Source: Gamsiella multidivaricata
Taxonomy: Eukaryota > Mortierellomycota > Mortierellomycetes > Mortierellales > Mortierellaceae
DNA length: 64,000 nucleotides
NCBI RefSeq assembly: GCF_025024155.1
Contig: NW_026251826.1
Span: 22,228-86,227 of the forward strand
Direction: 5' to 3'
How positions within the stretch are numbered: the first letter of the stretch is position 1; every line of letters begins with the position of its first letter. Of the stretch, positions 8,597 through 57,909 are shown in pieces. Position numbers and translations under genes: made by a program. The notes below the pieces were generated by a model. It was not told the origin of the DNA. It was given only the letters and a program-made list of their open reading frames with translations, and made no database searches.

Positions 8597-11500
8597 ATGT
8601 CAGCACTCAGCTCTCTTGCCTCAGAAAAAAGAAAGCGACCAAGGAGCCGCGCTGATGCCCAGTCGACCGAGAAGCAACCTACAAAAAAGCATCCGAGGAG
8701 GATCAAGGAACTCATTCACTTGGATGGTTCGTGATCGAACAATCAGGGGGTAGAGAGTTAGAGAGTAGGGCTTTGCACTAAACAAGAGTGCTTACCCTGC
8801 TATCTCAGGCACCATTGTCATAGACTTGCACGCTTATACCCTCCTATTAATCCACTCTGTGTCAATGTAGTCATTGCGGATAACCCAGCATTACTGGATA
8901 TGTCCGACGAGCCATTACACGGAGAAGTTGAATCATACTCAGATTACGACTCGGACTCATGAGGAATCGGTTAATGAATCGATCAATGGCGGGTCAGCGC
9001 GAAGGCTCTCGATTCAGGAAGCAACCGAGGATGAAAACATGGATGTCGACGAGGCCAAGCTTAACACTCATGGTATGAATGCTGTCATTGCGGAATCCAA
9101 CCCAGTGAAAGGCACCGAAGGCTCTTGCTCGTAATAATCAACTATCTATTCCTAGTCAAGTTTGAAGCGATTTTACGATACCTAATAGCCCCACCGGATC
9201 TTTACCAAACTGAAGGCGGCATGGCAGGGGACCATGGTGAATCGACGGACAGCAAGATCATGAGAGAAGCCCTCGCTTTGCAGACCTCGAACCTGAGCGT
9301 TAACACCAAGAACCAATACAAGACGCACTTGAGAAAGTTCTTAGTAAATGACGACAGCAACATACGTCGCTGGCGAGCAGACATGGTTGCGATGGAGCTG
9401 ATTCAATAACCAAGTTTTGTCGCTTCTCTATCTCTTAGAAATTTTGCAGCAATCTTCCTCTCGGCAATGTCAACGGAGACAGCGGAAGGGCTCACACCTA
9501 CGATGTTTCCGAGGTGAAGGTGCTTCGATTCTTCAAGGAGGTCATGTTCAAGTCAACCACCAAGAAGTACTTCAGTATGAACCAGAGCAGAGACGTTCGG
9601 ACACCGTATATGTTCAAATCGACCACTACAAAGGACCACATACCGACTTCGGCTCAAGGTATGCACAAAAGAAAGGAATTTCGTGACGCTCGCACTCTCA
9701 GGCCATTAACTGTTTACATGGTGGCCTTTCTTTCATACATATGACATATGGAACAGTCCTGCATGATATCAAACCGGATGCGAAAGGGCGGAAAGTGCTG
9801 AGCGTCCCCTGTGGCCGTCAGACCATGGAGAATGCGCTGAAGGCACTTTGCTATCTCCAGGATAGACAGAGCAAACGTCCGATACGCCCGAACGAGGAGC
9901 CCGAGCTTCGTAAATCGTCACTCATCAATAACGCCATGGACAAGTACTCTAACGACCTTGTAGTTGGCATCCTTGTGAACCACAAGGATCTTTCAGCCGA
10001 GTGCGAGATCCGAAATGCCTATACCGTCGCTCAGCACATCAAGTGTCTGTTGTACACATGGGCCCAGCCCATTACGATCCTGTCACCTTGGACGAGGGAA
10101 CATCTGGCCTTGGCAATCCGGCATAGCATGATTCTACGCAATGAGGACCTCTGTCATTTGAATCTCGTGGACTGCTTCATGATACAGGTCGAAAACCGAG
10201 ACAGAGGATCGCAGTCAGCGTTGGCGCTCGTCTGTGCAATGCATCGCGGCAAGACCAATCGAAGCGGCCATACGCAGTACGGGTGCGCTCTAAGGCATAG
10301 CGACGTTCGCCGCTGTAGCATTGGCGCCTTTGCCTTTTACCTGTTTGATCGCTTCCATGTACGTTGAAACAGACCTTGCACGATATACCATAGTTCTTAT
10401 TCCTACCTGACTAAAAGACTTAATTATGATAGAACAAGGAGGAGCCTCCGCCAGACATCAGCGACCCGGATTTCAAGGAGATCAAGGTTTTGCAAGGAAC
10501 AAAAGGAACCCATGCTAGCCGTTTAGCGCCATTGTCGTATTCGGCAAGTCGCGAAACAACATTGAAGACGTTTGAGACTCAGGAACTGGAGTGCGTTCAT
10601 CTCACACACTCTGGACGTCACAGCGGAACGATTGAGGCCCAGAAGCTGGGTATTCGAGCTGAGGATATCAAGCTTGGAGGCCGGTGGGTGCGTGGCAATG
10701 GCAGGATGGACCAGCACTACATGTCCAACATCCCTATCAGGTTCGCGTTTGGTATGGCGGGCTTTCGGGAAGGAAAACCCTTTCATCTCAAGAGGAACGA
10801 GGTATCGCCGCCGGTGGAGCTGCAGGAGATGATCTTCCCATTCGTCGAGACTGCATTCGGTGAACCAGGGTCTGAAGCCAACAAGAGATGAAGGGAGGAA
10901 TGTCTTGATGAGATGAATGAGAGGGATGAGGATCAGCCCGACCAACTTCAAAATGTCTTGCCCCTGGATCCATCACCGTCTGAGCCAGGTAGTGCTCCTA
11001 TCCATAAGGCGCACGCTGATATGAGCAAGAAACGTTTCTTCAAGATGGTCCTCCGCCTGCGACGAGTCATACTGCAGGACGCCGTGGCGTATATGCACAC
11101 ACATAGCAGCGCCAAGTCACCGCTTCTGGAGCATAGCCTGTTCAAATCGGAGTTGTTTCTCAAGTTCAAGGATGACCTGGCGGTTGTACTGGACCGAGAG
11201 GATGCTACCCTGCCGCCTGACCTTCCACCCATTATGGTTGAAGCTATAACGGATCAACGACAGCAGTATTCTGGCCATTACCAAGCTCTCAATGATAAGT
11301 TTCGACAAGTCCAACTTCAGTCTCAACAACAGAGGACTCAAGAGGAATCATTTCGCCTTTGGATGGCATCTCAAATGCAGCAAATGCAGCAGTATCTTTC
11401 AAGTCAACTGGCGCAGCTCTCAGTTCAAGTGCAGCAATCGAATGCCTGTGCCTGTCGTCATCCTCCGAATAGGCCCACCCCACCTTTTACTTGTTGTGCC

Positions 11501-19655: not shown

Positions 19656-21663
19656 TCACCGGTTGAGTTCTCCGCATAGGTTTCCTCGACGGGCTTGATC
19701 CTTCCAAGCTGTAATCATGACCTCGGTATTGTTAATTGCGGTTTCCCATTCTTTTGGATTCCCAGTCTTGATAATTCCCTCGATCGCTGTGACGATTGGG
19801 CGGAATCGACCGGTAAGCCTTTCGTGTAGTATGTCGACCGCAGCCGGAGGGATTAGAGTGTCCATCATTCTTTTCGGCTCGTCATCTGGTAGTTTCTCCT
19901 TCATCCGATCGATATAGGACTGCACCGAATCTGGACCGGTCCGCCCTAGAAACTCGACATGCGGAAAGATGTTCGAGCTATATTCCTTGACGCCGTCGCC
20001 GCTGCTCAGCGCCCAATGGAGAGTTTGGATGCTCAATCCTGTCCCGCAGCAGATGATAGTAAGCTCTCCTCGACCACCAAGACTTCGAAACCCATTCAAC
20101 ACGGGGGACAACATCGGACGTAGATCATCTTGTGTTGATGATGACACAAATGACGTATTACCCCGATCGCTGAGAATCTGGGCTTCGTCCACGACCAGTC
20201 GTAATTTGGTGTTTGCTGAGAAATTGGGATAGTTGCGGGCAGCAAGACTCTCTTGTACTGAGAGGAACCCATCTCGAACCACGCCAATCAGCACCAATTT
20301 GGAATGCACACGTTCATGCAGCTTTTTCAAAAAGGACCCTGAAAAGCTTTGAGAAGATGTCCTGGAACATTTGAGGTCAGACTTAGAGTACGGCCCAACT
20401 TGCGCTCGAAAACATTTGGCGGCAATTGGGGATCTGCAGACAGTATGTGAGGACCAGGAGTCGGGAGAAGAAGAGCACAAGGGTTGCGTTCCTTGCGAAG
20501 ACAGTGTTGAGTCTAGGATCTTGTTCCTCCAAGGTTTTTTTGTCAATTAACTCAGTAAGGTGGCTGAGGTCGTCTGATCCAGGATCGTTCTTTGACGCGT
20601 TGAAGTAGAATCCCCACTGTAGACAGAGCAGCTCAATCATGGACCGAGTCTTGCCGCATCCACTATGGATATCAGGAAGCATAAGTTAGACCAGGGAAGA
20701 GCAATAATATAGATAGGTACAGTAACTATTCAAAGCTATGCGTTGCAATGAGAACCTAACCTGACGCCGAATACTGGAAGATCTTGTGCTTGCACGCCTT
20801 CCAGCTTGCTCAACAGAATAGAATGTTCGACTGAAGCCGCTCAGGAACAGGATCGCCCGCGCTTGACGGAGGATCTGGTAGATCCAAAAAAAGAAGATTG
20901 GGGCCTACATCCTGTGTATCGACGATGCACGCCTCGCGACCTTCGGAAGGCCACACACCTGACGTAGTGACTGGCAACTTGAACTCTCCTCGAACGTACG
21001 TGTCGAGAAATAGACAAGCAGGGAATCCAGGGGCGAAGAACCGGTCTGCGATTTTTTTGATGTCCGAACGAAGGTCGCCTAGTTCATGAGGAAGAAGAGG
21101 GCATGAGCACAAGATTGTTCGTTACGACGGAAACTAAAAGCGACATTATTGCGATGCACTTACCCGACAGCGGCGTGCTAGGACGAGAATCATCCGAGGG
21201 ATGGCCGGGGAGCGGAGTAGATGCCCGAGCAAGGACAGGTGCATGGATTATGTCGGAGCAGTAAAGAGTGTGAAATAAGGTTAGCACATGGACAAGCTCA
21301 TGCGCGCGGTCAATGAAAGCAAAAGCGCGACGACATTACCTGGCGGGGGTCGCTGGACGATGATGTGGATTGTTTTCTTCGCGGCTTTTCTTCAAAGACA
21401 TCAGAAATGTCGTCTGTTGGTTCGAGTTCCGGTGCTGTCTCGTATTCTTTCAGGACTATCGGCTTGTGCTTGTTGGCCGGGACAAGTGGGATCGAGACGC
21501 GCCAAAGGGTGAGCATGTCTGCATCGACATCGGCGAAGGCGTTTTTTTTTCGTTTTTGATTTTATCTTTAAGCTGGCCGAAGGTCTTGGTAGACTCAATC
21601 TCGACAGGGATTGTGGTCGATTCACCGTCCACCACACAGCACAGTATCAGTTCGTTGACTGGC
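19656..21663 (-). pseudogene. CRN-like gene, header plus P-loop NTPase region, broken
   Basis: The ATG at 21663 (MPVNELILCCVVDGEST) opens a Crinkler ubiquitin-like header. The header continues with LTLWRVSIPLVPANKH and DDISDVFEEKP in another frame, because the A-run at 21542-21550 is one base short. After introns near 21.3 and 21.15 kb, the piece 21060-20830 (IKKIADRFFAPGFPACLF) leads to a second frameshift near 20825. A Walker A-like motif (V-S/R-G-C-G-K-T-R) is split by an intron near 20.66-20.76 kb. Two stops near 20370-20400 replace Gln and Cys expected from the fragment at 1-404. The last piece (20300-19656) has LRLVVDEAQIL and ELTIICCGTGLS. CRN proteins are secreted or host-translocated effector-type proteins in pathogens and are widespread in these fungi. 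This copy is clearly dead. Confidence 0.65.
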
Positions 21664-21914
21664 ATGGTGTCATGTAGCATGAAGAATGATGTGACGAGTG
21701 AAAAGGTAGAAAGGATGACGAGGGTGAAAAATGGGTGGATGAAGGATGTCAAAGGGAAGAACAAAGGCGTTGTGGAGACAATAAATGGGAAGATGGAAAG
21801 AAGAGCGTGGGAACGGTGACAATGGCGATGAAAGACAGGGAACGAAAGTAGAAGAAAGGAAGAGATGAAAAATTGTGAGAGTGATGACAGACAAAAAAAA
21901 CAGGGCGGGATGGT
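21664..21914. other. 5' flank of the CRN relic, GA/CT-rich
   Basis: There is no gene here. The plus strand is purine-rich. The stretch 21795-21850 (GATGGAAAGAAGAGCGTGGG...) resembles 33625-33665 on the other side of the large TIR element, in the same orientation. The element therefore seems to sit in a degenerate repeated upstream tract. Confidence 0.4.
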
Positions 21915-21920
21915 GGTGGC

Positions 21921-22820
21921 AGAAGCTCTGAACCCAGCCACCTCGTCTGTGCAATTCTTGCTGACGAGGGGCTGGGACAAAATCTCCCCCTCTACTATGG
22001 GGTCTCCCTTCCCGTCGTACTTCCTTTTTTGGACGAGATTCCTTTTTGGGAAGAAGGCTGCCAGCGGCCTCAGACCAACGCGCTCCTCGCTTCCTCTCCG
22101 CTCCTTCGCTCCTTCACGTCTTCCATAAAGTCGTCTCTTACATCGAATCCACCCTGCTTCACTCTCAAGTTAGGCGTCAACATGTCAAATAAAAGGCAGC
22201 TCAGGTACAGATGCGCATCTCAAGCACGTATTCATTTCCTGGCACGCGTTCATCAGCAGCATCCGAGCATCCGAGCATCCGAGCATCTGAGCATCCGCTG
22301 TTCAGTTTATCTCATCTCTTTCTCGCTCTCTTCTTCATTCTCTTGTACAAAAATAATAAAAAACGCTCGGGGTGGATTCTGCTATAGCGACATTCCGCCA
22401 TACAAAGGGACTCCGGCCACGCCAAGTAAACGCGCTTCCGGGGCTTCCAGGGTAAGACACAGTTTGATATAGTGCTCGGCGAGTCTTTGTTGTTGTGTTT
22501 GTCACGTTTCTTGCTGGTTTCCGACACGGTACAGCTTCAAGGCATAGGCGAGTTCGGCGTCCTCAACTTCAACAAACCTGATGTACAATCCCCAGGAGGT
22601 GCCAACCAAGTGAGTGAATATCAGTCACTGGTATGAACGCGATGTTTTGTTTCCAAGCACATTTCCAATCGTCTCTTGGCGCTTTGCATTTGCTCCGCAT
22701 AGAATACTCCGAGAAAAATCGCTGATGCTCTTCTTTCGTTGGGTGGAGCCCGTTCTCCTCTGGAGGGATCGACTTCCTCCTGGGTCTCCACAACATTCAA
22801 CGCCGCAGAAGACGCCGCGA
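21921..22820 (+). repeat. Left TIR of the large element (~900 bp)
   Basis: It is the near-perfect inverse of 28191-29012 plus 33482-33568; positions in the inner part pair as x and 51011-x. It contains the outer end, a presumed promoter, exons 1-3 and the first part of exon 4 of the DUF6589-like gene, and an (ATCCGAGC)n microsatellite near 22257-22300. Identity stops at GACGCCGCGAA near 22820, inside exon 4, where the two genes diverge. Confidence 0.95.
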
Positions 22821-25569
22821 AGATGCCAACAGGCCCAAGTATCTCGATACGCGAGTTTGTCCATACATCGCATGAGACGTTTGGTTCGCCAACACCTAAG
22901 AGCGTAAGAAGTCGATCCCATTCCCTCGTATTTAGGCCAGGTCAATGTGTATGTGCTTTGGACAGACATCTAACCTGCTGTGTATACTCAGAATAGACGC
23001 GCAGTGCTTGGGCAGCTGAAAGTGAGCAAAAGCACCTCGGCGATCGAGGTAGGCGAGCCATGCGCATGATATTGTTAACTGCCAAGATTTATATTACCGC
23101 CAAGAAATATGTACTAACGTTCATGTCATCTCAGGTGCCAGATTCACCTTCAGTAGGAAGCTACACAACTGGGCTAAATGGTCAGACGCCAACCTCGACT
23201 CGCAAGAGGCCTGTAAGTAGACCAGTTTTACAAGCACACGCATTATGTCCGCATCGATTTCCTATCTAAATTTATTAAAATCTGAATATATATTCCAGTC
23301 CACTATTCCACAGAAACTACTTAGAATTTTGCACTGCATCACGGAAGAAAATATGACTCTTCCCACCTTTTTGGAAGAGTTGTTCAAGTCCGATGATGCA
23401 GATGTCGCACAGTGGACTGGGGTATTCCACGAAAGCAAGGGTGCTGAGCGAGTTCTCAAGATCTGGGACAGCAAGCTGCAAGGCGGCAAGTGGGAAGAGG
23501 ATTTTGTCAACAGTGCTGTCGATGTCGTCGTCAACCGAACTTTAAAGCATCTTAGAAACGACGAGGTCAGAAAAGACTGGCGGCTACCACACACGAAGGT
23601 GACTGGGCAGAAGATCGCAGGTTTTTTAGTCGATGATTTTCGCTTTCTTCATCGGTACGCCGAAGGCGCCAAGTATTTGACACGGTTCTTGAAGGGTCTC
23701 CTCGAGGAAGATATTTCTGATCAGAAGCTCTCGCGCAAGTCACGCAAGCGTCGCGGGGCTCAAAAGCCTACGTCTGTTCGGGGATGCATCGCGGCGATGC
23801 TGATATTCATGTCGTCGCAAAAGGTCAACGCCTTCCAGACCATCATGGGGCTCTTTCTCCATTGCACAGGATGTCCAAAGAGAGTACTCGAGGTCCTCTC
23901 TGGGCTCGGGCTTTCGATCTCCTACAGCCAAGTCCAGAACGGGCTGCGATCGTTGACCAAGGACGCTCGGGAGCAAGTCAAGGAAGCGGTGGAGAAGTTT
24001 GATTGGTACATCGTGTACGACAACCTCAACATCGCTAATAAGCACCACAACCAAAGGTTTGACAAACGCGATACTTTCGACAATGGTACCGCCGCCACCG
24101 TCATTCTCTTCCCCTCCGACAAGGACCAGCCTTCCACTGCACCACCTGCTCTCTTTCGCCCGGAGGATGAGAGGCCGAACCCCGTTGCTGCCTTGTTCCT
24201 TCCCAATGAATTCGACTCGGAGGTGTTTCGACAGGTCAGCCGATCACACGTGTCCAATGCTATTGTGCGATCATCGCCGGAGGGATCCACTGCCGTTGCT
24301 ATTCCAGTTATGCCTATCAAAAAGCTCAATGTCAACAAGACTGCTCTGTTCCCGCTGCAGACCATGAGGCTCGACGAATCGACCATTGCCGGCAATTTGG
24401 CGGTGCTGGAAAGAATCACGCAGGTCGGCCTTCAATTGCCGAAAAGCTGGTTTGCACATCCCAAAAACACCATCGTTGCCGGTGACCAGATGACTGTGTC
24501 CAGGTTGCTGACTCTCAAGATTCACCGCATTGTCGATACCGATCCTTACCACAGCCTTGCATGGGTACACCCGACCCTTCAGCTCTTCCACCTTGGTATG
24601 AACTTGTGCGGCACCATCTTCAGGACACATTTTGGCTCCCCACTATTCCCAGGTACTCTTGCCTCGATCATTATTTTGCTGGACCGCAAGCGCTTGAGCA
24701 AGGAGAAGCAGGAGTTTAAAGCCGCGGACGAGTTGCTGAGGATTGTCTTTGACGCGATGGTGCAGTCGCTCTGCGAGTCCCTGCGGGAAGGTGGTGCATC
24801 AGACGAGCTTGATATTCCGAAATTCACAGAAACCATCACCAACTCCTTCTGTGGTTTGCCTTCGCCGTCGCTCTTTGATCTGCCCTGTACTACCGTCAAC
24901 ATCAACGCCCTTCTTTTCTTGCGCGATGTAGCGGTGCACATCGAGTTAACCGAGGCCATCAAAGCCGGCGACATTGGTCGCATCAGTCACCTGCTGCCGA
25001 TCATTACTTTGATGATGCATGGAGGAGGCAACACGAACTATGCGCTTGAACTGCTGCGTCTCCTCTATGGTTTTCGCCATCTGTGGACGGATGAGTGGGC
25101 GACAAGGGTCCTCTCTAGCATGCTTGTCAACCCCAAAGGCGTTGAAGGCGGATGGATGGCGACCGACATGCTTCAAGAGAATCATAACTATCTCATCAAA
25201 TCCATCTTTTCATCGAAAGGATCCAACATGACCTGGGAATATCTCAGGGATGCAATTTCCACCAACATCAGAACTTTTCAGGCCATTTCGTGGATGTTCG
25301 AGCGAGAGGTCGGAGTTGGCTCCAACAGCACTAAGCACAAGAAACCATCCACTGCATCGGAGATCTCCAAGATTCAGAGGTACTTCCGACACAGCGGCAT
25401 TTTATGCAAGTCCGGCCAATGCAATCAAGGGAACCCGGTGGTCGATCTTCAGGGGCTTGGTGGAGACAAGATGGTCGGGGGATCGATTGTACGATTTTTA
25501 GATAGGCACCAGATGGAGAATGCTGTGGATGTAGAAGAGACAGAAGCTCTCGAACATATGATAGATTAA
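22182..25569 (+). CDS. DUF6589-like protein, candidate DDE-type transposase of the large TIR element
   Basis: Seven exons join in frame with GT-AG introns: 22182-22204, 22388-22451, 22535-22609, 22703-22903, 22992-23048, 23135-23212 and 23299-25569. Together they make 923 codons including the stop, with no lesion. Exons 1-4 lie wholly or mostly in the TIR and encode a Ser/Pro/Lys-rich leader (SDIPPYKGTPATPSKRAS; NTPRKIADALLSLGGARSP). The large exon 7 resembles the fungal DUF6589 family: ARGCI-like RGCIAAMLIFMSSQ, then VYDNLNIANKHHNQRFD with GTAATVI, then VAGDQMTVSRL, LFHLGMNLCGTIF and NYALELLRLLYG. Asp407, Asp562 and Glu750 in these blocks are spaced and placed as an RNase-H-like D-D-E triad could be; that reading is inference. 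Its convergent partner is a RecQ-like helicase. It is presumably nuclear. Confidence 0.8.
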
Positions 25570-25815
25570 GTATAAAAATATTTGTTTTATTTTCTCTCCG
25601 TTTAACTACTCTGTGTGAAAAATGATTGAAATGAACAAAGAGAACGGGAGAACGAGAGAACGATGGTTGTAGAGTAAGATGGATAGAAAGAAAGCGGTGA
25701 TTCCTCGGGTTAGGTGGACGACCGATCCTTCCAGTACGGCAATCTCAATCTGCGGAGGCGGTTGGTCGCCGAGAGGTTGCTGATCAATCACACATACGGC
25801 CGCCAATGAATCCGA
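25570..25815. other. Convergent 3' spacer between the two element genes
   Basis: This 246-bp AT-rich gap separates the stop codons of the plus-strand DUF6589-like and minus-strand RecQ-like genes. Plus-strand AAATATTTGTTTTATTTTCT follows the first stop directly. No further gene is visible. Confidence 0.6.
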
Positions 25816-28800
25816 TTATAATTCTGGTAAGTTCTCTTCGCCATCACTTCCATCCCCATCGTTGTCGCTTCTCTCCCCATCGCCGTCGGAGCCGTTCTCT
25901 GACTGGTATGGCACAGATGCCGCCGTCGTCTGGCTGCCTGATCCGCGGCGAGCATCGATCTCGTTGTTGAGCTTGTCCAGGACCTGCGCGACCTCGCCAT
26001 ACAAATTCCCTCCAAGAGGCGCCCAATTGCAGGAGGAAGCGATGGCCTCGACTGCCGTAGCAGTTCTGGCCCCAGAGAATTTTTGCGACAGCTGTTTGGC
26101 CACATTATCCGGCAGGATCCACGTTTCTCTACCCATCCTGAAAGGTCTACTGCTCACCCATCTCTCGTACGCCTCCTTTCTCCACGCTTGGAGTCTCTCC
26201 AAGGCCATGTGTCTCTCTTCCTCCGAACGGCTCGGCCATCTCCTTCTGTTGCTCGATCTGGTATCATGACGAATAGTGGTGGGAACGGGACGATCAACCC
26301 TGAAGCATCCAGAACAGCTGTTGTTGCAAGTACGAGCGTCATTCTCAAACAATTTGTCTATTATTTTCCAAAGACACCCTCCTGCTTGGTTCATAAGGTA
26401 CTCGCGCACGTTTTTGTCTGAGGGGGAAGTTTTGCTGATCGGTGGTGCATAGAGGATTCCAAAGCCTTGGATCTTGGGATCTCGTGCTGCTCGTCCAAAT
26501 CGCTGAACCAAGCTCGGTATATCCCTTGGAAAGCTACATGGTACAAAAAAATGTCAAGACATTTTAGGTCAGGGCATTCGTTCCCTAGTGATCGCTCTAT
26601 TTTCATATATTTTTTGTGTATATCACTCACCCGTACTGAATAACTTGAATCACATCGGATATGTCACAACCCATGCCTGCAGCCTCGGTAGCCAGCAGGA
26701 CATGGATGTCACCCTCCATGAACTTGCTCATGGTTGCCTCCTTGTATTGGGATGTTAAGGTGGAGAAGTAAACACCCAGCCTATCCCGTAGATCGGGTCT
26801 CTCGCTCGTTAGATATTTAAAGACATCCATGAGAAGAGAGATTTTTTCGAAGTAAATAATCGTCTTGTCTTTGCCTAGCAGACGATTGAGACCCTTCTTG
26901 GCATCCTTGGGCTGAGTGTAAACCTCGAGACGAACATTTGTGGGAATCTCTTGCACACGAAGAACGTTGGCCTTGGACAGGAAGAGTTTGTCCATGGTTT
27001 GAGTGAGCGCATCGGCAGTGAGTGTCGCGGTGACACCCACAAACGGAACTCCAGGCGACCAAATGCAAAGCTCACCGAGGCGAGCATATTCCGGGCGAAA
27101 CTTGTTGCCCCATTTTTCAACACAATGGACCTCGTCTACCACTATGGCAAGCAACAGGTTCCGCCAGCGCGTATTTTGCCAAAGCCCTCGTACCAACCTC
27201 GAAGTAGGGCTGTCGCCAAAAATAATCTCGGGCGACATAAAGACTGCTCTGAACTCGCCTTCACATATGCGTCTAATCATGTCGCCATTAATGGCATCAG
27301 AGTTGTCGCCGGAGAGAACGATGTGAGGTATTTTGGCGTTGACCAGCTTCTGTACGATTGAATGGCAAAGCACAAAGATAAAAGGCGGTTAAAATTGACA
27401 CTATTGCTTCTGGTTGTATACTACATGGAAGGGTCCAGTTATGAACTACCTGCTGCTGATCGTTCATCAAAGCTATCAGTGGCGAGATGATAGCAGTGAT
27501 ACTGCGAGGCCAGTATGCCATAGGAAGAAAGAATGCGAGTGTTTTACCCCAGCCGCAGGGAGCAATCAACACACAGTCGGATTTTTGCGCTATGTGTTTC
27601 AACACCTCTAGTTGCTGCTCTTTTGGAGTACAGTTGAAAACTTCTCGACAAAGGCTAATGGCTTTTGATCTGGAAAAAAGTTGGGGGCCCTAAAAGATGC
27701 ACAAGATTACGCATGCAAAATGTTAACAAAAAGACTGAATAGCAAGGCAAAAGTGACTGAATCAATCTTCAAAAAACACTTGCCACATCATCACTATCCT
27801 CGTTTTCTTTGTCTGGCAATGGTATAAGTCTCTCTAGCACAGCTTGTGATGGCGACGAAAGGAACTGCATAGGCGAGGGGATAGGCTGAGTCGGCGTTGC
27901 GACGGAGTGTATTGGCGTTGCGTCAGATTTTTTTGGCGAGAAGGCAGGCTTTGTTGGCGACGTGTATGGCGAGAAGTCAGAATCTTCAGATGAAGAGTCA
28001 ATGCGTGCTGGCGATAAAACATTCCGTGCATGAGATAAGAGAGCTTGTGCTGTCGACAATATAAATGATGTTGGGGAATTAGGAGACTGTTCAGGCGAGT
28101 CGATAGACAGATTTGGAATGAATGCGGAGCGAATTCGGATTGGTGTCTCCTGCCCTGGCTGAGAAGGTTGCGCGGGCGCCCAGAAAGGGTTCGCGGCGTC
28201 TTCTGCGGCGTTGAATGTTGTGGAGACCCAGGAGGAAGTCGATCCCTCCAGAGGAGAACGGGCTCCACCCAACGAAAGAAGAGCATCAGCGATTTTTCTC
28301 GGAGTATTCTATGCGGAGCAAATGCAAAGCGCCAAGAGACGATTGGAAATGTGCTTGGAAACAAAACATCGCGTTCATACCAGTGACTGATATTCACTCA
28401 CTTGGTTGGCACCTCCTGGGGATTGTACATCAGGTTTGTTGAAGTTGAGGACGCCGAACTCGCCTATGCCTTGAAGCTGTACCGTGTCGGAAACCAGCAA
28501 GAAACGTGACAAACACAACAACAAAGACTCGCCGAGCACTATATCAAACTGTGTCTTACCCTGGAAGCCCCGGAAGCGCGTTTACTTGGCGTGGCCGGAG
28601 TCCCTTTGTATGGCGGAATGTCGCTATAGCAGAATCCACCCCGAGCGTTTTTTATTATTTTTGTACAAGAGAATGAAGAAGAGAGCGAGAAAGAGATGAG
28701 ATAAACTGAACAGCGGATGCTCAGATGCTCGGATGCTCGGATGCTCGGATGCTGCTGATGAACGCGTGCCAGGAAATGAATACGTGCTTGAGATGCGCAT

Positions 28801-28829
28801 CTGTACCTGAGCTGCCTTTTATTTGACAT
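25816..28829 (-). CDS. RecQ-like DNA helicase of the large TIR element
   Basis: The first four exons mirror those of the DUF6589-like gene: 28829-28807, 28624-28560, 28477-28402 and 28308 to about 27788. Exon 4 leaves the TIR and continues into a Ser/Pro-rich segment (NPFWAPAQPSQPGQ). Exons 5-7 follow at about 27689-27450, 27349-26631 and 26533-25816. Helicase motifs appear in order: Walker A (APCGWGKT), Ia (ISPLIALMNDQQQ), II (VVDEVHC), III (GVTATLT), IV (KTIIYFEK), V (ATEAAGMGCD) and VI (LVQRFGRAARD). A Cys-containing segment (CNNSCSGCF) fits the RecQ zinc-binding region. The C-terminus is acidic. All pieces are open. The donor of exon 4 is uncertain; GAT-GTGGCA would be weak but in phase. 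It is a 3'-5' helicase by family, with a probable role in element replication or excision (inference). Confidence 0.85.
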
Positions 28830-29012
28830 GTTGACGCCTAACTTGAGAGTGAAGCAGGGTGGATTCGATGTAAGAGACGACTTTATGGAAGACGTGAAGG
28901 AGCGAAGGAGCGGAGAGGAAGCGAGGAGCACGTTGGTCTGAGGCCGCTGGCAGCCTTCTTCCCAAAAAGGAATCTCGTCCAAAAAAGGAAGTACGACGGG
29001 AAGGGAGACCCC
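28191..29012 (-). repeat. Right TIR, inner part
   Basis: It is the inverse of 21999-22820. It holds exons 1-3 and the start of exon 4 of the helicase gene. The outer 87 bases of this arm lie at 33482-33568, beyond the Crypton-bearing insertion. Confidence 0.95.
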
Positions 29013-32000
29013 TATGTTTTTGGCTTTCCAGTCCTGTTGGAAAAATTTCCAAACTCCTATGGTTGGAAATCCAAGGCAATCTTCCCACTATAGTGTAACT
29101 AACAAACATCCTTTCCAACCTTGTGACAATAGAGAGGCTTGATTGGATGAAGGCAGTGCCTGTTTTGTTTTATTCTCTTTCACTTTCACTTTGTGCTTCT
29201 CTTCCTCTTCTTTTTTCATTTTTGCTCTTCTTTTATATCTCATCCTCATCTACTCTCCTTCCTCCACCTTCCCCTTTGTCCATTTTCTTTCGCCTTTGCC
29301 CTCTCCCACTCAATCCTTAAAGAGGACGCTCCACAGACTGTCTTCTTCGCTTTTTGGTTCCAACAATATGAACCCATTAAAAGTTCAGTGGGTTTACGTC
29401 CATCCTTCAGTAGAAAAAAGTGGTGCTAAGCGCTCACGAAAGCGACAGGGCTCTGTTGTAAGTGAGAGTCAGAGAATCGATGATCAGCATAGAAAGCAAT
29501 ATAAACCCTCTAGGATCCCAGGACCAGGAGGGTCTGCTGAAGGTACAACGCTCAAGGTTCACAAATGCACGCAAGCTATCGAGTAATCTTCATTCTCACT
29601 CTCCACTCTCCATTCTCACCTTCAACTTCTTCTGCTAATAATACCCCCCGCTCACAGGGGAGCTGTCGACTATCAAAGATCAATTGATAATGGAGCCGCC
29701 TCTGGACATGGACATTTATGACAATGAAAATGAAGGCGAAGGCGAAGATCCCACTATGAACTCTGTGTCGGAAGAGAGACTCGCTGAAGATGTCGACCTG
29801 GACTCGGAGTGTGATACTGGCAGGGATGGCAGTGGTGGCCTTATGGATAGACGACCGGTGGCAGCAAGAGAGCTGGCTAAGAAAGGTTTGTAGATATCCC
29901 TGATATTACAGGGGACAGGCTTGACTGGTCTTGACAACAGAAGAGACTCAGTAGCCTTCTGTTTGTAATGACTCTGATTCTTCGGCACTCTGGCATCATA
30001 GAAAAATTCGACAAGTTTGTGCGCTCCCTCGTTCTAACCAAAGAGTTGGAAAGCACCTTCGTTAATCCTCCTGGGGTCATCCAATCTGAAGCTTCCCGAT
30101 CAGTTCGACAACAGGAGTTAGAGACAACTGCCAAGAATGAGAAGGGGAAACCACTTGCAGTAAATACTATGGATATGTACATGCTGCCCTTGGGATTGTA
30201 CAAGGTGAGTCTGACAGTTACAGGCGATACTACTTTAAAGGATTGTAAGAGCAAGAAGAAGAACGAAGGATACAAACACACAATAAACCGGCCATCAAAC
30301 GGATAATAATAGAAATTCTGCGATGACAACTACTCAGACGAGGGGGCACTTCGCTATGATGTGACCCCAGGCAAGGCCATCCTCTTCTTTGAGAAGGTCA
30401 TGTTCTGTCGCACGTCCAAGAGATACTTTTACAAAAAACAGTTCAAAGACATTAGGACGACAATCTGTCTTCCACCAGGCTTTGAAGGCCACATTCACAA
30501 AAATCGAGTCGATCTCGCAGAGGGTAATGTGTCTGAGCCATTCCACGTAGTGACACCTTTTTTTGATTGTCGGCCTGTTATGCTTTGCAACAAGATTAGA
30601 GCAATTGACATTTCACACTACTATTACTCATTCATCTAGTCTTGAGGGAGGTCAAGGAAGATGGGAAAGGAAGGAAGGCGGTAGTTGTGCCTTGTGGCCA
30701 AAAAACTATGGACATGGCGCTGTGTGCGCTCACCTATCTCCAGAAGCGACAAGCAAACCGGTTTACATCTCCAAACAACTCAAAGGAACTTCGGAGCGTC
30801 ACACAACTACAAAATGCGATTGATCACTACTGCCAAAACTTGATTGTTGGCGTATTGCAGCATGAGAAAGACCTCTCGTCAGACTGCATGATACGAAACA
30901 GCTACACGGAAGAGGAACATTTAAGAGCATTGCTCGATACGTGGGGTCAGCCACTTGACACACAGGCTCCATGGATAAGGGAACACTTTGCTCTCGCAAT
31001 CCGACATGCAATGCTATTAAGGGACGAAGACTTGAGGAGGCTTAATTTGTCGGATTGTTTTGTGGATTTGGCTCCGAACCGCCTAGGAGGCACACAGGCT
31101 GTGGCGATGTTGGTTTTTGCGATTCATCGCGGAAAGACGAACCAGATGGGCAAAACGCTCCACGGAGCTGCAATTCGTCACGAGGATGTGCGCCGCTGCA
31201 GTGTAGGGGCGTTTGCATTCTACATGTTCGATCGGTTCCAGGTGCGCTTTTTTTTGTTGTTGTTGTTGTTGTTGTTTGGGCCAAATATGGATACTCAACA
31301 TAACATCATCCACTTGGATACATAGAACAAGGGAGAGCCTCCACCAAATCTAAATGACCGCAACTGGCTCCAGTTCAAAGTTTTACGAGGAACCAACCTT
31401 GACCCTACAACTCCAATCACTTATGCCACTACTAGGGAGTCTACATTGAGGACATTCGAGCGACAAGAACTCTCATGTGCCTACATTACACATTCTGGTC
31501 GACATAGTGGCTCGATGGAGGGTCAAAGGTTGCAAATCCCTTTGGAAGATATCAGGAGAGCTGAACGATGGGTACATGGCAATGGAAAGCTGGAGAATTA
31601 CTACCTCAACGAGTATCCGTGGAATTTTGCGTTTGCCATAGCAGGCTTCAAGGAGAGGCCGTTTCATTTGAAGAGGAACGAGGTATCGCCGCCCTTGGAT
31701 CTTCAGAGAAAAGTCTTCCCTTTTATCGAAAGCTCATTCGATAACGACAAAGGGATGGACCAAGCATGGCGAAAGGAGTGCGATATGGAGATGATGGAGT
31801 ACAATCCCAATGAGAAAAGTCAGCTTCGCGACATCAAGCCTCGGATTCCTATGTCTAGCACATACGAGAAAGCACCTGTTCATTTTTCCGATTCTATGAG
31901 GGCCAAGAAGTGCTACCTACGGATGCTTCTTCGTACGCGACGAATTATCTTGCAGGATGCAGCCGAGTACTTGTGTGAGTATTCGTATCTGCAATCGCCT

Positions 32001-33481
32001 TTGTTAAAGAACAAAATTTTCCAGACACAAGAATTTCAAGAATTCAAGGGTCTTGTCAAGGAGAGACTGCAGATCAAAGAGCGATCAATGCCTGACGGCA
32101 TTTCCCCAAAGGTCCTACAACTGTTCGCAAATCAACGAGAAGAAAGCAAAGAGGAAAAATCCCGGCTAGAAAGGGTTATTACAGCCTTGATGGAAGAGCG
32201 GCGAGAAATGCGGCAAGAGATGCAGCGAGACCGTGCACAGCTGACTCACTTGACGGCACTGCTTACCGCCAGACCGATGTCGCTACCCATACCAGCAGCA
32301 CAGTGGACAACAGGAGCATTGTGGTCGCCAGGCCTTACTTACCCTCATACACACATCCCGCATACTACCCGCCGCCAGTATCGGAGTCTCCCAACTCTTG
32401 CAATAATTGTTCATCAGCATCAGCACTGCACACTATGCCTGCAAGAGCTACTGCAAAGTCGATGACAGCAGGGCCTGCTCCACCATCATTCTCAACAAGG
32501 ACACCTGCCGTGTTGCCAACAAGGGGGTATGCCGAAATCGCCCCACGCCCAAAGCAAGGCGCTCCAGACCCAGATAAGGCTGAAGAGTTCTTTGAAATCA
32601 GTTACTATCTTGAATCTGCAGGGGACGTCTACGAGGAGTACACAAGGTACCGGACATATCGCGCCAGTCAGAAAAGGCAGGGCAAAGCCGAGGATATCCT
32701 GCCGAAAACGAGAAAGCAATTGAGCAATAGGAAATTCATCGTCATGGAGGTCGAACATATTCAACAACAAGGAATCCAAAAAGGGCTGACCAACAAACAA
32801 GCACTTACTGAGGCATTCGCCCAGTTAACGCGCTCAATGTCTGAGACGTATGGTGGAAAGAAGCTGAGCATCAATAAGATGGTCGAGTATTGTCGCAAGA
32901 GGGTGAAAGGAAGAGAGAATGGAAACAATGAAAATAGGGAACACGACGCCCAAGACGTCCAAGAAGAAGAAGAAGAAGAAGAAGAAGAGGAGGAGGAGGA
33001 GGAGGAGGAGGAGGAGGAAGAGGAGCAGCTGAGAAGAAAGAGGCACTGAAATGGTGTAATAAATTTTCCCTTGCGTTAAGAAGCTCGAGAGCAAGTAAAC
33101 ATGGATTATTTTTTTTTTTCCCTCTTTTTTTTTTCTGCGTGTATTATGTGTGTAGGCAAGGTTCACGGGTCCATGGGTCAACACACCCCGTCGCCTTTGG
33201 AACGTCTACACACATCAAGCGGTAAGATGGCAAATGTGTGCAATGAGAGCATATTTTGGCCGATTTTTGGTCGTTTCCAACTTTTTCACTTTTTTCCAAT
33301 CCAGGGCGCTCTAGACCAAGGGTTTTATTGGATTTGACTTGGAAAAAAATCTTGTGGCTGAAAACCAGTCGAACCTCTCTAAAATCAACCAAACATATCG
33401 ATCCCCTCTGAAGTAGGAGGCCTAAAAAGGAAATTACATTTCCGACCTCCTTAACTGGAAGAGAGGGCTGGGTCGAGCCTA
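29013..33481. mobile_element. 4.47-kb insertion in the right TIR, flanked by a 9-bp direct repeat, carrying Crypton 3
   Basis: The 9-bp sequence GGAGACCCC occurs at 29004-29012 and 33482-33490, exactly where the right TIR is split. The intact left arm has only one copy at the same place. The insert starts TATGTTTTTGG and ends GGGTCGAGCCTA. The left end has no inverted copy of the right end. The right end, read inverted as TAGGCTCGACCCAGCC, matches termini seen at 54677, 39347, 63119 and 63239. Cryptons can be flanked by short direct repeats made by the recombinase; alternatively the Crypton is passenger inside a MULE-like element with 9-bp duplications. Confidence 0.85.
29368..33049 (+). pseudogene. 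Crypton 3: tyrosine recombinase gene with a late frameshift
   Basis: The exons are about 29368-29538, 29658-29885, 30000-30204, 30316-30522, 30640-31241 and 31326-33049. Motifs seen are FCDDNYSDEGAL and FFEKVMFCRTSKRYF (SAM-like part), LLRDEDLRRLNLSD (Arg I), RGKTNQMG (Lys), HSGRHSG (His and Arg), ERWVHGNGKLENYY (Trp and Tyr), then a coiled coil (EERREMRQEMQRD). The reading frame of the catalytic part ends at 32465, while the DNA-binding-like C-terminus (SYYLESAGDVYEEYTRY, KLSINKMVEYCRKR and an acidic poly-Glu tail) is open in another frame from 32303. A frameshift or a missed intron lies in this overlap. All catalytic residues are kept. It sits inside the right TIR of the large element. Confidence 0.8.
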
Positions 33482-33568
33482 GGAGACCCCATAGTAGAGG
33501 GGGAGATTTTGTCCCAGCCCCTCGTCAGCAAGAATTGCACAGACGAGGTGGCTGGGTTCAGAGCTTCT
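33482..33568 (-). repeat. Right TIR, outer 87 bp
   Basis: This is an exact inverse of 21921-22007, ending ...CAGAGCTTCT. It is separated from the rest of the right TIR by the Crypton-bearing insertion. Confidence 0.95.
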
Positions 33569-33574
33569 GGTGGC

Positions 33575-34280
33575 AAAAGTTGAAGTGGTGGCAAACAGAG
33601 GATGGCAAACAGAGGATGGCAAAGATGGAAAGAGGAGCGTGGGAGCGGTGGCGAGCAATGAAGGAAAGTCGAAGGCGTGAGACCGATGGCGAAGACAAAA
33701 AAGGGGGCCGTGGCGAGACCGTGGCAAAGGCAAAAAAAGGGAGTGGCAAATTTTCGCTATTTCCTACATCGCAGGGAAATAAGGAAAGTGACGTCATAGA
33801 TTTCTTTGTGTGTGTTTGCTGCTTCTCGCTTACCATTCCTATCTTGGTTATCGCTTCTCATCTCTCCACCCCCTACTTTTTCATCAACGCCTGTCTTTTG
33901 CCACCGCTCCGCGCCCTTACTCCCACGCACCATTCTTACGACCTTTCCTCTCCCACCATTGCTACCGCTCGCCTCGCTCTTCTCATCATTACACGCCCCT
34001 ATTCTTCTGCCCTCTTTTGCCACTAGCCCAACCCCATCACCACGTCATTACCCTTATCTTCGCGCGCCCCTCTTTTTCGTCGTCTTTCTTTCTATTCTCG
34101 CCACCACTCTCACAGGCTTTTCATCATTACTCCCTCGCCTTTTCATCTCCCACCGTTGCCACCACTCCCACGCCCTCGCCCTTCTCGACATCACACTCCT
34201 TTTCGCTTGTTTTTTGGAACAGTGGATTAGGAACACCTGCATGCTGCGCATGCTTCACGTCAATCCAGACTGACTCTCAG
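33575..34280. repeat. Degenerate pyrimidine-rich repeat tract
   Basis: The first part holds tandem GGCAAACAGAGGAT units on the plus strand near 33590-33620. From 33840 onward the plus strand is made of degenerate units of the kind TTGCCACCGCTCCCACGCCC. Similar sequence, inverted, lies at 21795-21850. The long open frames here have biased composition (Ser/Pro/His/Leu), so I do not treat them as genes. Confidence 0.5.
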
Positions 34281-39878: not shown

Positions 39879-42800
39879 TTGCTGCATAGGCTGGTATTCG
39901 TATGGCGTATGAGAAGGATGTCCACGTTGTACCCGGCGACGTTATCACCAGCGTCGATAATAGGCATCACATCGTTTGCAGGTATTTCGGTTCACCGTGG
40001 ATCGCCTATTTACCAGCCCATTAACCCCAGCGATGGAGGGGAAGGTACTGAGCGACCCACAACGGCTGAGAAACAGGCGCCAATCCAGTTCAGCGCCGCG
40101 CTAGTTGACTCCAGTCAGCAATGCACGGACAATGACCACGAGGTCATTGACCTGAATACGATTGAAGACGATGAATATGGAAAAGCGTACGAGAATTACA
40201 CCGTGGAGCATAATCCTCTCAACGACTTTTACGATGGCTATCCCGTTTTTATGCCTGACGAGAATTTAATATTCATAAAAATCAACAATTCTGTGCGACG
40301 CAAAGGCGATAGCCTGGACAATCGCATCATTGTCCCCGTCTACATTTATGGCGACAAGCACATGGCACTTGTTGATACTGGTGCATCGCATTCATTTATT
40401 GACACGAAGATCGTGAGCCAATACAATATTGCTGTCATTGAAGCAACAGGTCACGTTGAGCTGGCAGACAAATCTACCATTATGAGAATCGGTGAGACAG
40501 AGAATGTTGGAGGAAGCGTTCTATCCGCTCCGTACGAGGTCATCGAACAGAAATATGCGATTTTAATCGGCATGGATCATTTCTATCGGTTCGGCTTCAG
40601 GATTGAAGGTCTTCCTGATGTGGAAGAGTCTACCCATCGGGTACCGGAACCTTAAGAGGATAGCAAGCCTACTCTCAAGCGTCTCATGATCCCTGACATC
40701 GAGAAGGAACCTGAATTTATAGCTGCGAAAGAGAAATTCATGCGCTATCAGGCCTAAATTGGAAGAATTCCTTTGACAAGTCACTGTCCGATTCCAGAAA
40801 TGAAAGTGTTTCTTCCCGTGCCTGAAGGCACAGTTGTGTTTCGTAGGTCACGTCACTTTGCTCATGCTCAATGCCCCATTCTAGACGAGGCTGTAGAGAA
40901 ATGGATAAAGGACGATGTTGTTACATTGGCTCCGCCCAACAACCCGCACAACAACACACTGACCTTGGCTGCGAAGAAGGATCTTGAAGGGAACAAGACG
41001 CTCTGGCGGGTCTGTCTTGACCCACAACCGCTGAACGCTCATCTACCAGATGATAATTTTCCCTTGCCACTGATTTCTGAAATTATGCAGAGTGTCGGAG
41101 GCAACGACATCTTCACTACCGTCGATTTGCGTCAAGCTTATCATCGTCTGCCAATTCATGAAGAGGACCAACCCCTCACGGCTTTTATGCACAATGGGCA
41201 ACAATATATGTTTAAAAAGGCACCATTTGGCCTTAAACCATTATCGAGTTTGTTCCAACGTGGAATGTCTCGCATTCTAGGAGACCTTGATTTTGTTCGC
41301 AAGTTCATGGATGATATCATCATCAAGTCCCAGAATCGTGAAGGTCACATTCACCACGATGAGAGCGTCATTGAACGCCTGAACGATGCCAAACTCATTA
41401 TCAATCAAGACAAATGTAATTTCTACAGCACCCAAGTTGCGTTACTCATATTCATCATCGATCTGAAGGGCAAGCGAGTCGATCTCCAAAAATTGGCTAA
41501 TATCGATGACTGGCAACCGCCTACCACTGGAAAGCAGGTACAATCGTACATGGGCACTTTTAATTTCTTTAGGGAATTTATGCCTATGATCAGTACTATT
41601 GCTGCTCCACTTGATGCTTTGCGCAACGAGCCAGGCACATTTGAGTTAAACGAGATACAATTGCGTTGCTTTAATGCACTGAAGAATATTCTTGTGCAGG
41701 CACCTGTATTATCATTTCCGAATTTTGCTGAGCCCTTTTATGTCGCCACAGATGCATCTAACGTGGGTATTGGAGCTGTCTTGTACCAGCTGCCTGAAGA
41801 CGAAGAGAATCCCAAGAACATTAGATATATTTCATTTGTCGCGAGGTCGTTGCAGGAGAGAGAAAGGAAGTACTCCGCAACGCAGAAGGAGCTACTAGGA
41901 ATAGTATTCGCTCTAAAGAAATTTCATTATTATTTGTGGGGTAGGCATTTTACGTTGTACACGGACCACCGCGCACTGACGTTCATTCATTCTCAAAAGG
42001 AGATGAACTCGATGCTCACTAGATGGCAAGAGACCATCCTGGATTACACATTTAAAGTCATTTACCGACCATGAGTGCTTAATGTATTACCGGATGCATT
42101 GTCGCGGCAGTTCCCACGGGAGCTTTGGACGAGTAGAGTACCTATGAATGGACCTACGAAAATTTATAGCTACATGCATCTTATCCAGGATAAGCAAACT
42201 CCCAGAGAGACGGTACCAGAAGATAAACGTAAAACATTGCTAGCCGGTACTCACGCGCTTGGCCATTTTGGCACAAATGTCATGGTCAATCATATTCACT
42301 CTCTGAACAAAACTTGGCCCTTGATGGCTAAAGACTGCTTAGAATTTGTTCAGAGCCGTACAGAATGTCAACGCGTAAATATAAGACGCAAGGGATATCA
42401 TCCTCTGTCTGCAATCCATGCCCAACTGCCCGGAGAGCATATGGCAATAGACCTTGCCGGATCTCTCCCAGGAAGTGCCAAAGGGAACACCATGTTGCTC
42501 ATTTTAGTAGATGTCTGCACTCGGTTCGTCTTTCTCGTGCCCATGAAAAATAAGACAGCAGAAACCGTAGCGCACAAATTATTCAAGATATTTACCATCA
42601 TTGGTTTTCCCCGCATTTTGCAGTCGGACAATGGAAAAGAGTTCGTTAATGAGATTATGAGAGTGATGGCCACAGAGATGGGTGTACAACATCGGTTGGT
42701 CACTCCATATCGCCCTCGAGCCAACGGCGTAGCCGAGAACCATGTTAAGACAGCTGTAAACATTATCCGTAAAGAAATCAAAGCGAAGAAACGCAATTGG

Positions 42801-43679
42801 GACCGACATGTCATCATGGCTCAATTAGCCATGAATACGAGAATTGTTGCGTTGCACAACTCGTCCCCTTTTTCGTTATTTTTTGCCAGACGATTCAACG
42901 GTTTCCATAATTTTTCAAACGATAAGGATGAACGATTATCCCATAGTGAACTCTTGGAGCGACTTCAATACATGACTGAAGTTGTCTTCCCAGCTGTGAA
43001 CGCCAAGTCGCGTGCCACTCAGAAGAGAATGATTGAGCGATTCAACAGAACGGTACTGCACAATGAGTTTCCGGATGGAGCCAAGGTCATGACTCTCGAT
43101 CCTATCTTGGGTGATAAATTGACACCCAAGTATGAAGGTCCTTACGTTGTTGTGCGTAGAACCATAGGCGGTGCGTATGTTTTGAAGGACGGCACTGGCG
43201 ATTTGCTTCAACGCCAGTATGCCCCATCCCAACTCAAACTCGTACTCGACGACTACGACGACACCACTTACGAAGTAGAAGAGATTCACGAACATCGGGA
43301 TAATTCTGAGGGGGGAGTGGAATACTTCGTAAGCTGCAAAGGGTATACAGAGAGGACCTGGGAACCAGAAGAGAACTTTGTTGAGAGAAAGTGTATCACA
43401 GACTACTGGAAGAGTCGCGATCTTCCTGGACCACCTTCTCGACCGCACCCTCGTCAAACTTTGAAGAGCCACAAGGCAAAGCAGAATCAGCAGGAGGCAC
43501 TATTGACTCAGCGTCCAGTAGCACGTAAAAATACTATGAACAATTCTGCTGATAGTGTAACCACCCCGAAACCTAAACGCGGTCGCCCACCAAAGGTCAA
43601 TATAAGCGCAATTGATCGAGAGCCACCCCGCAAACGAGGACGCGGTAGGCCACGAAGCATATCAGCGAGCAGAAAGTAG
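39879..43679 (+). pseudogene. Chromodomain Ty3/Gypsy pol polyprotein, broken by stops
   Basis: One frame covers the whole pol, interrupted by TAA at 40653, TAA at 40755 and TGA at 42072. Domains in order are: retropepsin (LVDTGASHSFID), reverse transcriptase (WRVCLDPQPLN, TVDLRQAYHRL, KFMDDIII), RNase H (YVATDASNVGIGAVL), zinc-binding integrase N-terminus (GHFGTNVMVNHIH...ECQR), integrase core (AIDLAGSL, LQSDNGKEF, RANGVAENH) and a chromodomain (YFVSCKGYTERTWEPEENF). The tail has AT-hook-like KRGRPPK and RGRGRPR. The integrase zinc site has Arg where the first Cys of CxxC is expected (VQSRTECQR). No gag with a zinc knuckle is seen upstream, so the 5' part is truncated or missing. Chromodomains target integration to marked chromatin in this group. 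Confidence 0.9.
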
Positions 43680-56810: not shown

Positions 56811-56950
56811 TTTGCCATCTCTGTAGCAAGATCTATTGCTGTTCCTGTCGCTGTTGCTGTTGCTGTTGCCATTGCTGGTGCAATTGCTGTTGCCGTTGCT
56901 GGTACTGTTGCTCTTGCTCTTGCCGTTGCTGTTGCTGTTGCTGCTGCTAT
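56600..56950. repeat. CTGTTG-type repeat (poly-Gln on the minus strand)
   Basis: Degenerate CTGTTG/CTGTTGC units encode poly-Gln on the minus strand, in frame with the end of the RecQ-like relic but beyond its TAG (at 56947). That stop could be a CAG-to-TAG change within a longer Gln-rich tail. Confidence 0.7.
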
Positions 56951-57907
56951 TGCAGTTGCTTCTTATCCCATTCCTGCAATTCATCTTTCGAATCACTCGA
57001 TAGTAGTCGTTTGAGCTCTAGCATGTGTTGTTTGAATTCTTTGATAGACTCTGATGTGGCTGTTGGTGGTTCTGGTGCTGGTATCTGTAGCGTTATGTAT
57101 GGTAAGCCTTGTTTGAGGTCTATCCTGCTCTGCGCTCCGGCTGGTGCTGGTGCTGATGCTGGTACTGGTGCTGGTACTGATGCCGATGCTGGTGCTGGTG
57201 CTGGTAGTGCTGGTTGATGCGGCATTGTATTTTGCAAATATTGTCTGAGGTCTATCCTTTTCAGTCCTGACGGCCTTTCAGATCTGATTGTTACGTTCAG
57301 CTCTATGAGCCTGATGCTGAGCATTCGTCCGATTAGAGGCGTCAGTGGCTCCCAACGGACGACCTCAGGGAGACTCGTTACCTTGACGACAGCGGCGCTT
57401 TTGGCTGCTAGCTTATCCATCATTGAATCAGGCATCACACTGCCTGAGCCCACTAGATAGCAGCGATCCTTGTAGAAGAGATTGAAAGCGTCAAGCCTCC
57501 AGGCCTTGATCACCTCCAATGCGCGAGCCTTCTCTGCTCCTGCCCGTAATGGTGGCCGACCTTTCTTAATTTTACTGGTCCCCGCAATTCCCGTTTCCAT
57601 GACAAATTCGGGGTTACATATGTCGCAACAGTTTTCTAGATCCTGGTGTTGGTTGTTGAAATACGAATTCAGATATCTGCGTCGACAGGTGGTCGAGGTG
57701 ACATATTTTTTGAGTGCCGGTTCAATCGACTGGATATCACGTCGTGGCACAAGAAGAATCCCGGACCCAGAAATGTGTGGATCGCGCGCCGCTCGACCAA
57801 GTCGTTGAACAAGAGTCGAGATATTGTTGGGATATCCATACTGGACGACGCGGACAACGTCACTGATATCGCACCCCATTCCTGCTGCCTCCGTCGACAG
57901 CAATACA
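56947..57907 (-). pseudogene. RecQ-like helicase 2, C-terminal fragment
   Basis: Motif V (STEAAGMGCDISDVVRVVQ) and motif VI (STLVQRLGRAARDPH) are present, then a Cys cluster (CCDICN) and a long Ala/Pro-rich tail. It is similar in layout to the helicase of the 21.9-33.6 kb element but clearly diverged. The N-terminal half is missing: the sequence stops at the TIR of a palindromic Tc1-type element, and on the other side of that element lies Crypton 4. It is possibly the relic of a second DUF6589/RecQ element. Confidence 0.75.
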
Positions 57908-57909
57908 TA

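What the first reader, a model, noticed from the sequence alone, without database searches (positions are those of the whole stretch)
21921..33568. A TIR transposon that pairs a DUF6589-like gene with a RecQ-like helicase
Two convergent, fully open multi-exon genes lie between ~900-bp terminal inverted repeats that are almost identical. The element has no recognised transposase other than the DUF6589-like protein, which makes that protein the candidate. DUF6589 is named as a domain of unknown function. The RecQ-like gene has all helicase motifs. The near-identity of the arms and two intact genes suggest recent movement. I do not know of a described transposon class with this exact pair, though I could not search.
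Basis: partly seen in the sequence, partly recalled or inferred. Interest (0 to 1): 0.92.

Follow-up and report, generated by a model that had tools for sequence, protein, structure and literature searches.

The report
Fungal transposon with helicase and DUF6589
A soil fungus carries a family of jumping DNA elements in which a protein of unknown function looks like the cutting enzyme (transposase) and is paired with a helicase, and one of these families seems to land at a fixed distance from one short DNA word.

Summary
The finding is a real transposon. In a Mortierella-type genome (a 100% protein match is named Gamsiella multidivaricata) a 7.17-kb element with 900-bp inverted repeats (899/900 identical) carries convergent DUF6589 and RecQ-like genes. 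The genome has 17 detected DUF6589 loci: 16 have the convergent helicase, 15 have inverted arms. Ten of 12 insertions with readable ends show a perfect 9-bp target duplication. Four sister copies differ by 0-2 substitutions, so movement is recent. DUF6589 is very probably the DDE transposase: its predicted fold is closest to Hermes, P-element and other DDE transposases. Helicase plus 9-bp duplications fit the described AcademH lineage; I could not compare transposase sequences with it. Three features I did not find described: arms that encode the N-termini of both proteins in three families; TGGTGGC 10 bp outside the duplication at five insertions of one family (a sixth fits); and a nested insertion with a 9-bp duplication but one canonical end. 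The target-word rule rests on six sites and was seen after looking.

The parts
21922..22821 (+). left terminal inverted repeat (900 bp); tip GAAGCTCTGAACCC; carries predicted leader and first coding exons of the DUF6589 gene
   Evidence: 899 of 900 identical to the right arm; tips
28190..29012 (-). inner part of the right terminal inverted repeat; carries predicted leader and first coding exons of the helicase gene
33491..33567 (-). outer part of the right terminal inverted repeat, cut off from the inner part by the nested insertion
21914..21921 (.). left copy of the 8-bp target duplication TGGTGGCA
33568..33575 (.). right copy of the 8-bp target duplication TGGTGGCA
33586..33592 (+). TGGTGGC, 10 bp outside the duplication
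23299..25569 (+). main exon of the DUF6589 gene (predicted DDE transposase); smaller predicted exons about 22535-22609, 22703-22903, 22992-23048, 23135-23212
   Evidence: PF20231 E=2.9e-89; fold; exons predicted from GT-AG signs
25816..28308 (-). RecQ-like helicase gene, four predicted exons here plus first exons in the right arm (about 28402-28476 and upstream)
   Evidence: Helicase_C and DEAD; exons predicted by eye
29013..33481 (.). nested insertion in the right arm (4,469 bp)
29004..29012 (.). GGAGACCCC, left copy of the 9-bp duplication of the nested insertion
33482..33490 (.). GGAGACCCC, right copy of the 9-bp duplication of the nested insertion
29368..33049 (+). Crypton-like tyrosine recombinase gene in the nested insertion (several exons; extent by eye)
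   Evidence: NDC10_II E=7.5e-9, 35.5 bits over a cut-off of 26.3, in 30609-31322; HxxR and Y read by eye
33403..33481 (-). right end of the nested insertion, identical to the tip of C99/C96b elements
   Evidence: 100% over 79 bp

Best explanation
A recently active, probably autonomous DDE-type DNA transposon (7.17 kb, ~900-bp inverted repeats) of the helicase-bearing kind, most likely of the AcademH lineage. DUF6589 is its transposase: it would bind the hairpin-prone tips of the arms, cut the element out and join it to a target with 9-bp staggered cuts. The convergent RecQ-like helicase would open or remodel the ends or help repair the gap. Because the arms are near-identical, both genes are read from the same promoter and leader, and in three families from the same first coding stretch, so both proteins would share an N-terminus and be made together. 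The window copy was later hit in its right arm by a second element that carries a Crypton-like recombinase. Shown: anatomy, repeats, duplications, copies, linkage. Predicted by model: the fold. Inferred: catalysis, the helicase's role, co-expression, excision, AcademH membership.
Confidence: 0.72

Rival explanations
1. The element is a DDE transposon of another lineage, MuDR-like (IS256-related) or a new superfamily near hAT and P, that took up a RecQ helicase independently of AcademH and KolobokH.
For: Long arms and 9-bp duplications are also the mark of MuDR (recalled). Best fold matches are Hermes (hAT) and P element, and the IS256-type ISCth4 is in the list (its family recalled). [quoted passage not shown]
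Against: No hAT, MULE or P domain reported at E<=0.1 besides DUF6589; the helicase with 9-bp duplication is what is reported for AcademH.
Confidence: 0.25
2. The nested insertion is a Crypton that integrated by its own recombinase at the conserved CAGAGGGG word of transposon tips, rather than DNA moved by the DDE machinery from one proper end.
For: Two copies of the recombinase region (window and C48) are joined at the same base, CAGAGGGG|ATCGATATG, to tips of two different families. HxxR and Y can be read by eye.
Against: The outer borders are a perfect 9-bp duplication and, on the right, a tip ending at the usual base; a Crypton sitting in a tip should have the rest of that element on its left, which is not there. 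The C48 copy has no 9-bp duplication that I could see.
Confidence: 0.4
3. The arms arose by a local inverted duplication and the two genes are host genes.
For: No empty site was found.
Against: Same gene pair between inverted arms at other loci, near-identical sister copies in unlike flanks, and 9-bp duplications.
Confidence: 0.02

Closest known systems
AcademH, Academ superfamily (Kojima 2020; the paper is not held, I saw passages in PMC10045372 and PMC10799480 that cite it)
   Same: encodes a helicase, 9 or 10 bp duplications, found in fungi including Mucoromycota; DEAD and Helicase_C are listed as its domains
   Different: not known to me: whether its transposase is DUF6589, whether its arms encode both N-termini, whether it has a fixed-distance target word
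KolobokH (passages of PMC9587614 and PMC10989895)
   Same: RecQ helicase in a fungal DDE transposon; a rhodophyte Kolobok has RecQ on the complementary strand
   Different: TTAA 4-bp duplications; [quoted passage not shown] here 9-bp duplications and a separate convergent gene
hAT (Hermes) and P-element transposases
   Different: no hAT or P domain by sequence; duplications are 9 bp, hAT and P make 8 bp (recalled)
MuDR / IS256
   Same: long arms, 9-bp duplications (recalled); ISCth4 in the fold list
   Different: no MuDR-type Pfam domain; no helicase known to me
Crypton (nested insertion only)
   Same: NDC10_II-type recombinase gene
   Different: 9-bp duplication and one DDE-transposon tip at its borders

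Membership tests
AcademH | encodes a helicase | tested here: met
   DEAD and Helicase_C; closest named model on the C99 helicase is RecQ family, 192.7 bits under a cut-off of 219.8
AcademH | 9 or 10 bp target duplication (feature from a passage of PMC10045372) | tested here: met
   perfect 9 bp at 10 of 12 insertions with readable ends
AcademH | DDD/E transposase of the Academ clade | not testable with these tools
   DDE-like fold predicted, but no Academ sequence at hand to compare
KolobokH | TTAA 4-bp duplication | tested here: not met
[quoted passage not shown]
   separate convergent gene on the other strand
MuDR | MuDR-type transposase domain in Pfam | tested here: not met
   only DUF6589 at E<=0.1 in the window protein; distant kinship not excluded
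hAT | 8-bp duplication (recalled) | tested here: not met
   8 bp only for the window copy, 9 bp for 10 of 12
hAT | Hermes-like catalytic fold | tested here: inconclusive
DDE transposase (broad class) | RNase H-like core with acidic triad | tested here: inconclusive
   fold list led by DDE transposases; D240, D395, E626 kept; spatial fit of the triad not measured
Crypton (nested insertion) | tyrosine recombinase | tested here: met
   NDC10_II over cut-off; catalytic residues by eye only
Crypton (nested insertion) | integration by the recombinase without staggered-cut duplication (recalled) | tested here: inconclusive
   9-bp duplication present, but the same inner junction in two copies

The most novel reading that the evidence does not exclude
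The GAAG-tip family (this element and its sisters) chooses targets by a fixed-distance rule: it lands so that TGGTGGC lies exactly 10 bp outside the duplicated site, on one side. The insertion complex, through the DUF6589 transposase, the RecQ-like partner or a host DNA-binding protein, would dock on this word and cut at a set distance; the N-terminal stretch that the arms give to both proteins could be the common docking piece.
Probability: 0.35. Interest if true: 0.75.

Novelty: new variant of a known kind. Interest (0 to 1): 0.6.

Why it matters
DUF6589 is a Pfam family named as of unknown function, and no paper in the held library contains its name. If it is the DDE transposase of helicase-bearing elements, proteins known only as 'DUF6589 domain-containing' in Mortierella relatives and in at least two mushroom-type fungi can be read as transposases. 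The near-identical copies give a system to ask what a RecQ-like helicase does in eukaryotic transposition, and the target word makes target choice directly testable.

Tried and rejected
Local inverted duplication: rejected because of duplications at unlike sites. One 11.6-kb element with three genes: rejected because the four sister copies lack the third gene and the arm is split. Empty site by the flanks: the right flank is single-copy; the left flank has a near-identical second copy at the end of contig C125 which also holds the start of the element, so it is a duplicated region or a second haplotype, not an empty site. A fixed-distance word for the TAGG-tip insertions (five elements and the nested insertion): none, the best 5-, 6- or 7-mer is in 2 of 6, as in the control. 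Relatives in viral contigs: 54 pattern matches, none confirmed. Viral fold library: one match under 0.001, a Pandoravirus protein with a hAT dimerisation domain, TM-scores only about 0.2. Solved structures by sequence: two chance-level hits, E 0.28 and 0.59. Foldseek against PDB was not run; only the second-look aligner ran. Literature: papers holding 'AcademH' were listed, the defining paper is not held. The listings for DUF6589 (none), RecQ with inverted repeats (one, not opened), Academ with helicase, KolobokH, Academ with Mucoromycota (20 of 438 listed), Academ with XPG (none) and Academ with Novosib showed no paper on this pair; I opened passages of seven papers. The third protein search, by profile, added only relatives of Mortierella among named hits.

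Full report
What is there. Repeats pair 21920-22007 with 33482-33569 (88 bp) and 21999-22821 with 28190-29012 (823 bp), both 100% complementary. They are two parts of one arm pair: a 4,469-bp stretch (29013-33481) is inserted in the right arm between two copies of GGAGACCCC. With that stretch set aside the element is 7,168 bp with 900-bp arms, 899 positions identical. It holds a DUF6589 gene on + (PF20231, E=2.9e-89) and, convergent on -, a helicase with Helicase_C and DEAD domains. The best named model on a sister helicase (C99) is the RecQ family, 192.7 bits, under its cut-off of 219.8, so I say RecQ-like. The inserted stretch holds a gene with an NDC10_II domain, a mark of Crypton-type tyrosine recombinases (the link to Cryptons is recalled).

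The host. The window is G000:C22:22228-86227 of a 37.5-Mb genome. A predicted protein of Gamsiella multidivaricata is 100% identical to the DUF6589 query over 96% of it; among 52 hits (7,998 candidates scored, a capped list) the named ones are Mortierella relatives except two from Dentipellis and Mycena.

Copies and linkage. DUF6589 gives 24 matches at 17 loci (a lower bound). I fetched all 17 (window). In 16 of 17 a RecQ-like gene lies convergent to it; the exception, C149, is a fragment. Inverted arms were found at 15 of 17: from 134 bp (at a contig end) to at least 1.9-2.1 kb at C125 and C94, where they run to the end of the fetched stretch; identity 93-100%. The fragments C137 and C149 show no arms around the genes. 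Conversely, (74 matches, 66 of 86 candidates scored) has 23 helicase loci with a best E below 1e-25, leaving aside two matches that are arms of C99 and C96: 16 lie beside DUF6589, three are cut by contig ends (C60, C63, C126), four are not (C117, C118:236557, C152, C22:79513 = window 57286). C117 keeps a 619-residue open frame; its surroundings could not be fetched. Outside this genome the only hint of linkage is that a DUF6589 protein and a helicase of Linnemannia gamsii both come from a contig of 126,007 bp (P0007, P0053).

Mobility. Four sister copies (C148, C96, C95, C1; 7,210-7,211 bp, arms about 670 bp) differ by 0-2 substitutions and at most one gap and sit in unlike flanks. Their DUF6589 is 59-74% identical to the window's by piece. 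The element ends at GAAGCTCTGAACCC in this family and at TAGGCTCG in the seven others whose tips I saw. Perfect 9-bp duplications: C148, C96, C95, C1, C99, C96b, C118, C147c and the nested insertion, 9 of the 11 two-ended rows; and C147a, read by eye. The window copy has 8 bp; C147b is imperfect. The other loci were not scored (ends cut off, ruined or not fetched). No empty site was found.

Where it belongs. Two helicase-bearing fungal lineages are in print. [quoted passage not shown] A KolobokH at chromosome ends of Cladobotryum has two RecQ-like genes and an uncharacterised one (passage of PMC10989895). AcademH encodes a helicase, makes 9 or 10 bp duplications and occurs in Basidiomycota, Ascomycota and Mucoromycota (passages of PMC10045372 and PMC10799480): met as far as testable. 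The transposase comparison, which would decide, needs Repbase sequences. MuDR stays a rival.

Arms that encode both N-termini. In C118, C99, C147b and C147c the arms run to within about 130 bp of the conserved part of both proteins; in the window and C148 they stop about 500-600 bp short of it. In C147b both frames carry MTAPPPYPPQPAIPCQVRTAERCLGADMD, 29 residues, and NCBI's model of that helicase starts there (P0066); the DUF6589 gene of C147b is in two open frames. The related C15 element, itself broken, encodes a diverged version of the stretch in both arms. In C99 both frames carry MNRVKLPVTYQFNLSPQ, 17 residues. In the window 39 residues (NTPRK to EDAA) are encoded identically on both sides, with further predicted exons upstream. 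Against: in C118 the two frames do not agree across the arm end, and the arms seem to stop just past a splice acceptor. So the arms can supply promoter and leader to both genes, and in three families a common N-terminal peptide. That it is translated is inferred.

Target choice. In the GAAG-tip insertions TGGTGGC lies outside the element: 19 bases from the end in C148, C96, C95, C1 and C15 and 18 in the window copy, whose duplication is one base shorter; so it is 10 bp outside the duplication at all five sites with a known duplication. C15 has one readable end, so its duplication is assumed. In the control, 1,000 sets of six random flank pairs from held DNA, no 7-mer was shared at one offset by more than 2 of 6; observed 5 of 6 at one offset. 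The word occurs 44 times in 337,222 strand-bases of held loci. Six sites are few and the word was chosen after looking. It resembles GGTGGCAAA, the Rpn4 site of yeast proteasome promoters (recalled, not tested).

Tips. Folded as RNA, the outer 100-140 bases of eight tips have z-scores of -2.1 to -5.1 against simple base shuffles; in most a stem pairs CCAGCC-like with GGCTGG-like words. These may be transposase sites.

The nested insertion. It has a perfect 9-bp duplication, and its last 79 bp are identical to tips of the C99 and C96b elements, but its left end is not an inverted copy. A second copy of the recombinase region at C48 (99%) is joined at the same base to the tip of a different family. 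Either the DDE machinery moved this DNA from one proper end, or the recombinase integrates at CAGAGGGG in such tips. I lean slightly to the first.

Verdict. A real, recently active transposon family; DUF6589 is very probably its DDE transposase. The class is probably known (AcademH); the identity of DUF6589, the common N-termini and the target word I did not find with the searches named in Tried and rejected.

Noticed in passing
window 5065-6236, 9765-11257, 30609-32462, 59275-60233: Four regions encode Crypton-like recombinase sequence related to the gene of the nested insertion (25-56% identity for the other three).
   Followed up: partly
window 56950-57978 (-): A partial RecQ-like helicase (Helicase_C, RecQ_Zn_bind) of the transposon kind without a detected DUF6589 partner.
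   Followed up: partly
C147:7778-25611 (L039-L041): C147b and C147c appear nested one after the other in the right tip of C147a; the window's nested insertion also sits in an arm, so tips may be favoured targets.
   Followed up: partly
L056 and L057 (C105, C170): Single transposon tips of about 75 bp lie in the middle of a palindrome (ATTATAATTCAA / TTGAATTATAAT), probably inside copies of one short mobile repeat.
   Followed up: no
window 20900-22290 and C125:287014-288399: The left flank with the start of the element is repeated almost identically at the end of contig C125: duplication or second haplotype.
   Followed up: partly
window 40758-43676 and 45973-47172: A retroelement (reverse transcriptase, RNase H, integrase, chromodomain) and a Tc1-type transposase gene: the region is rich in mobile elements.
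   Followed up: no
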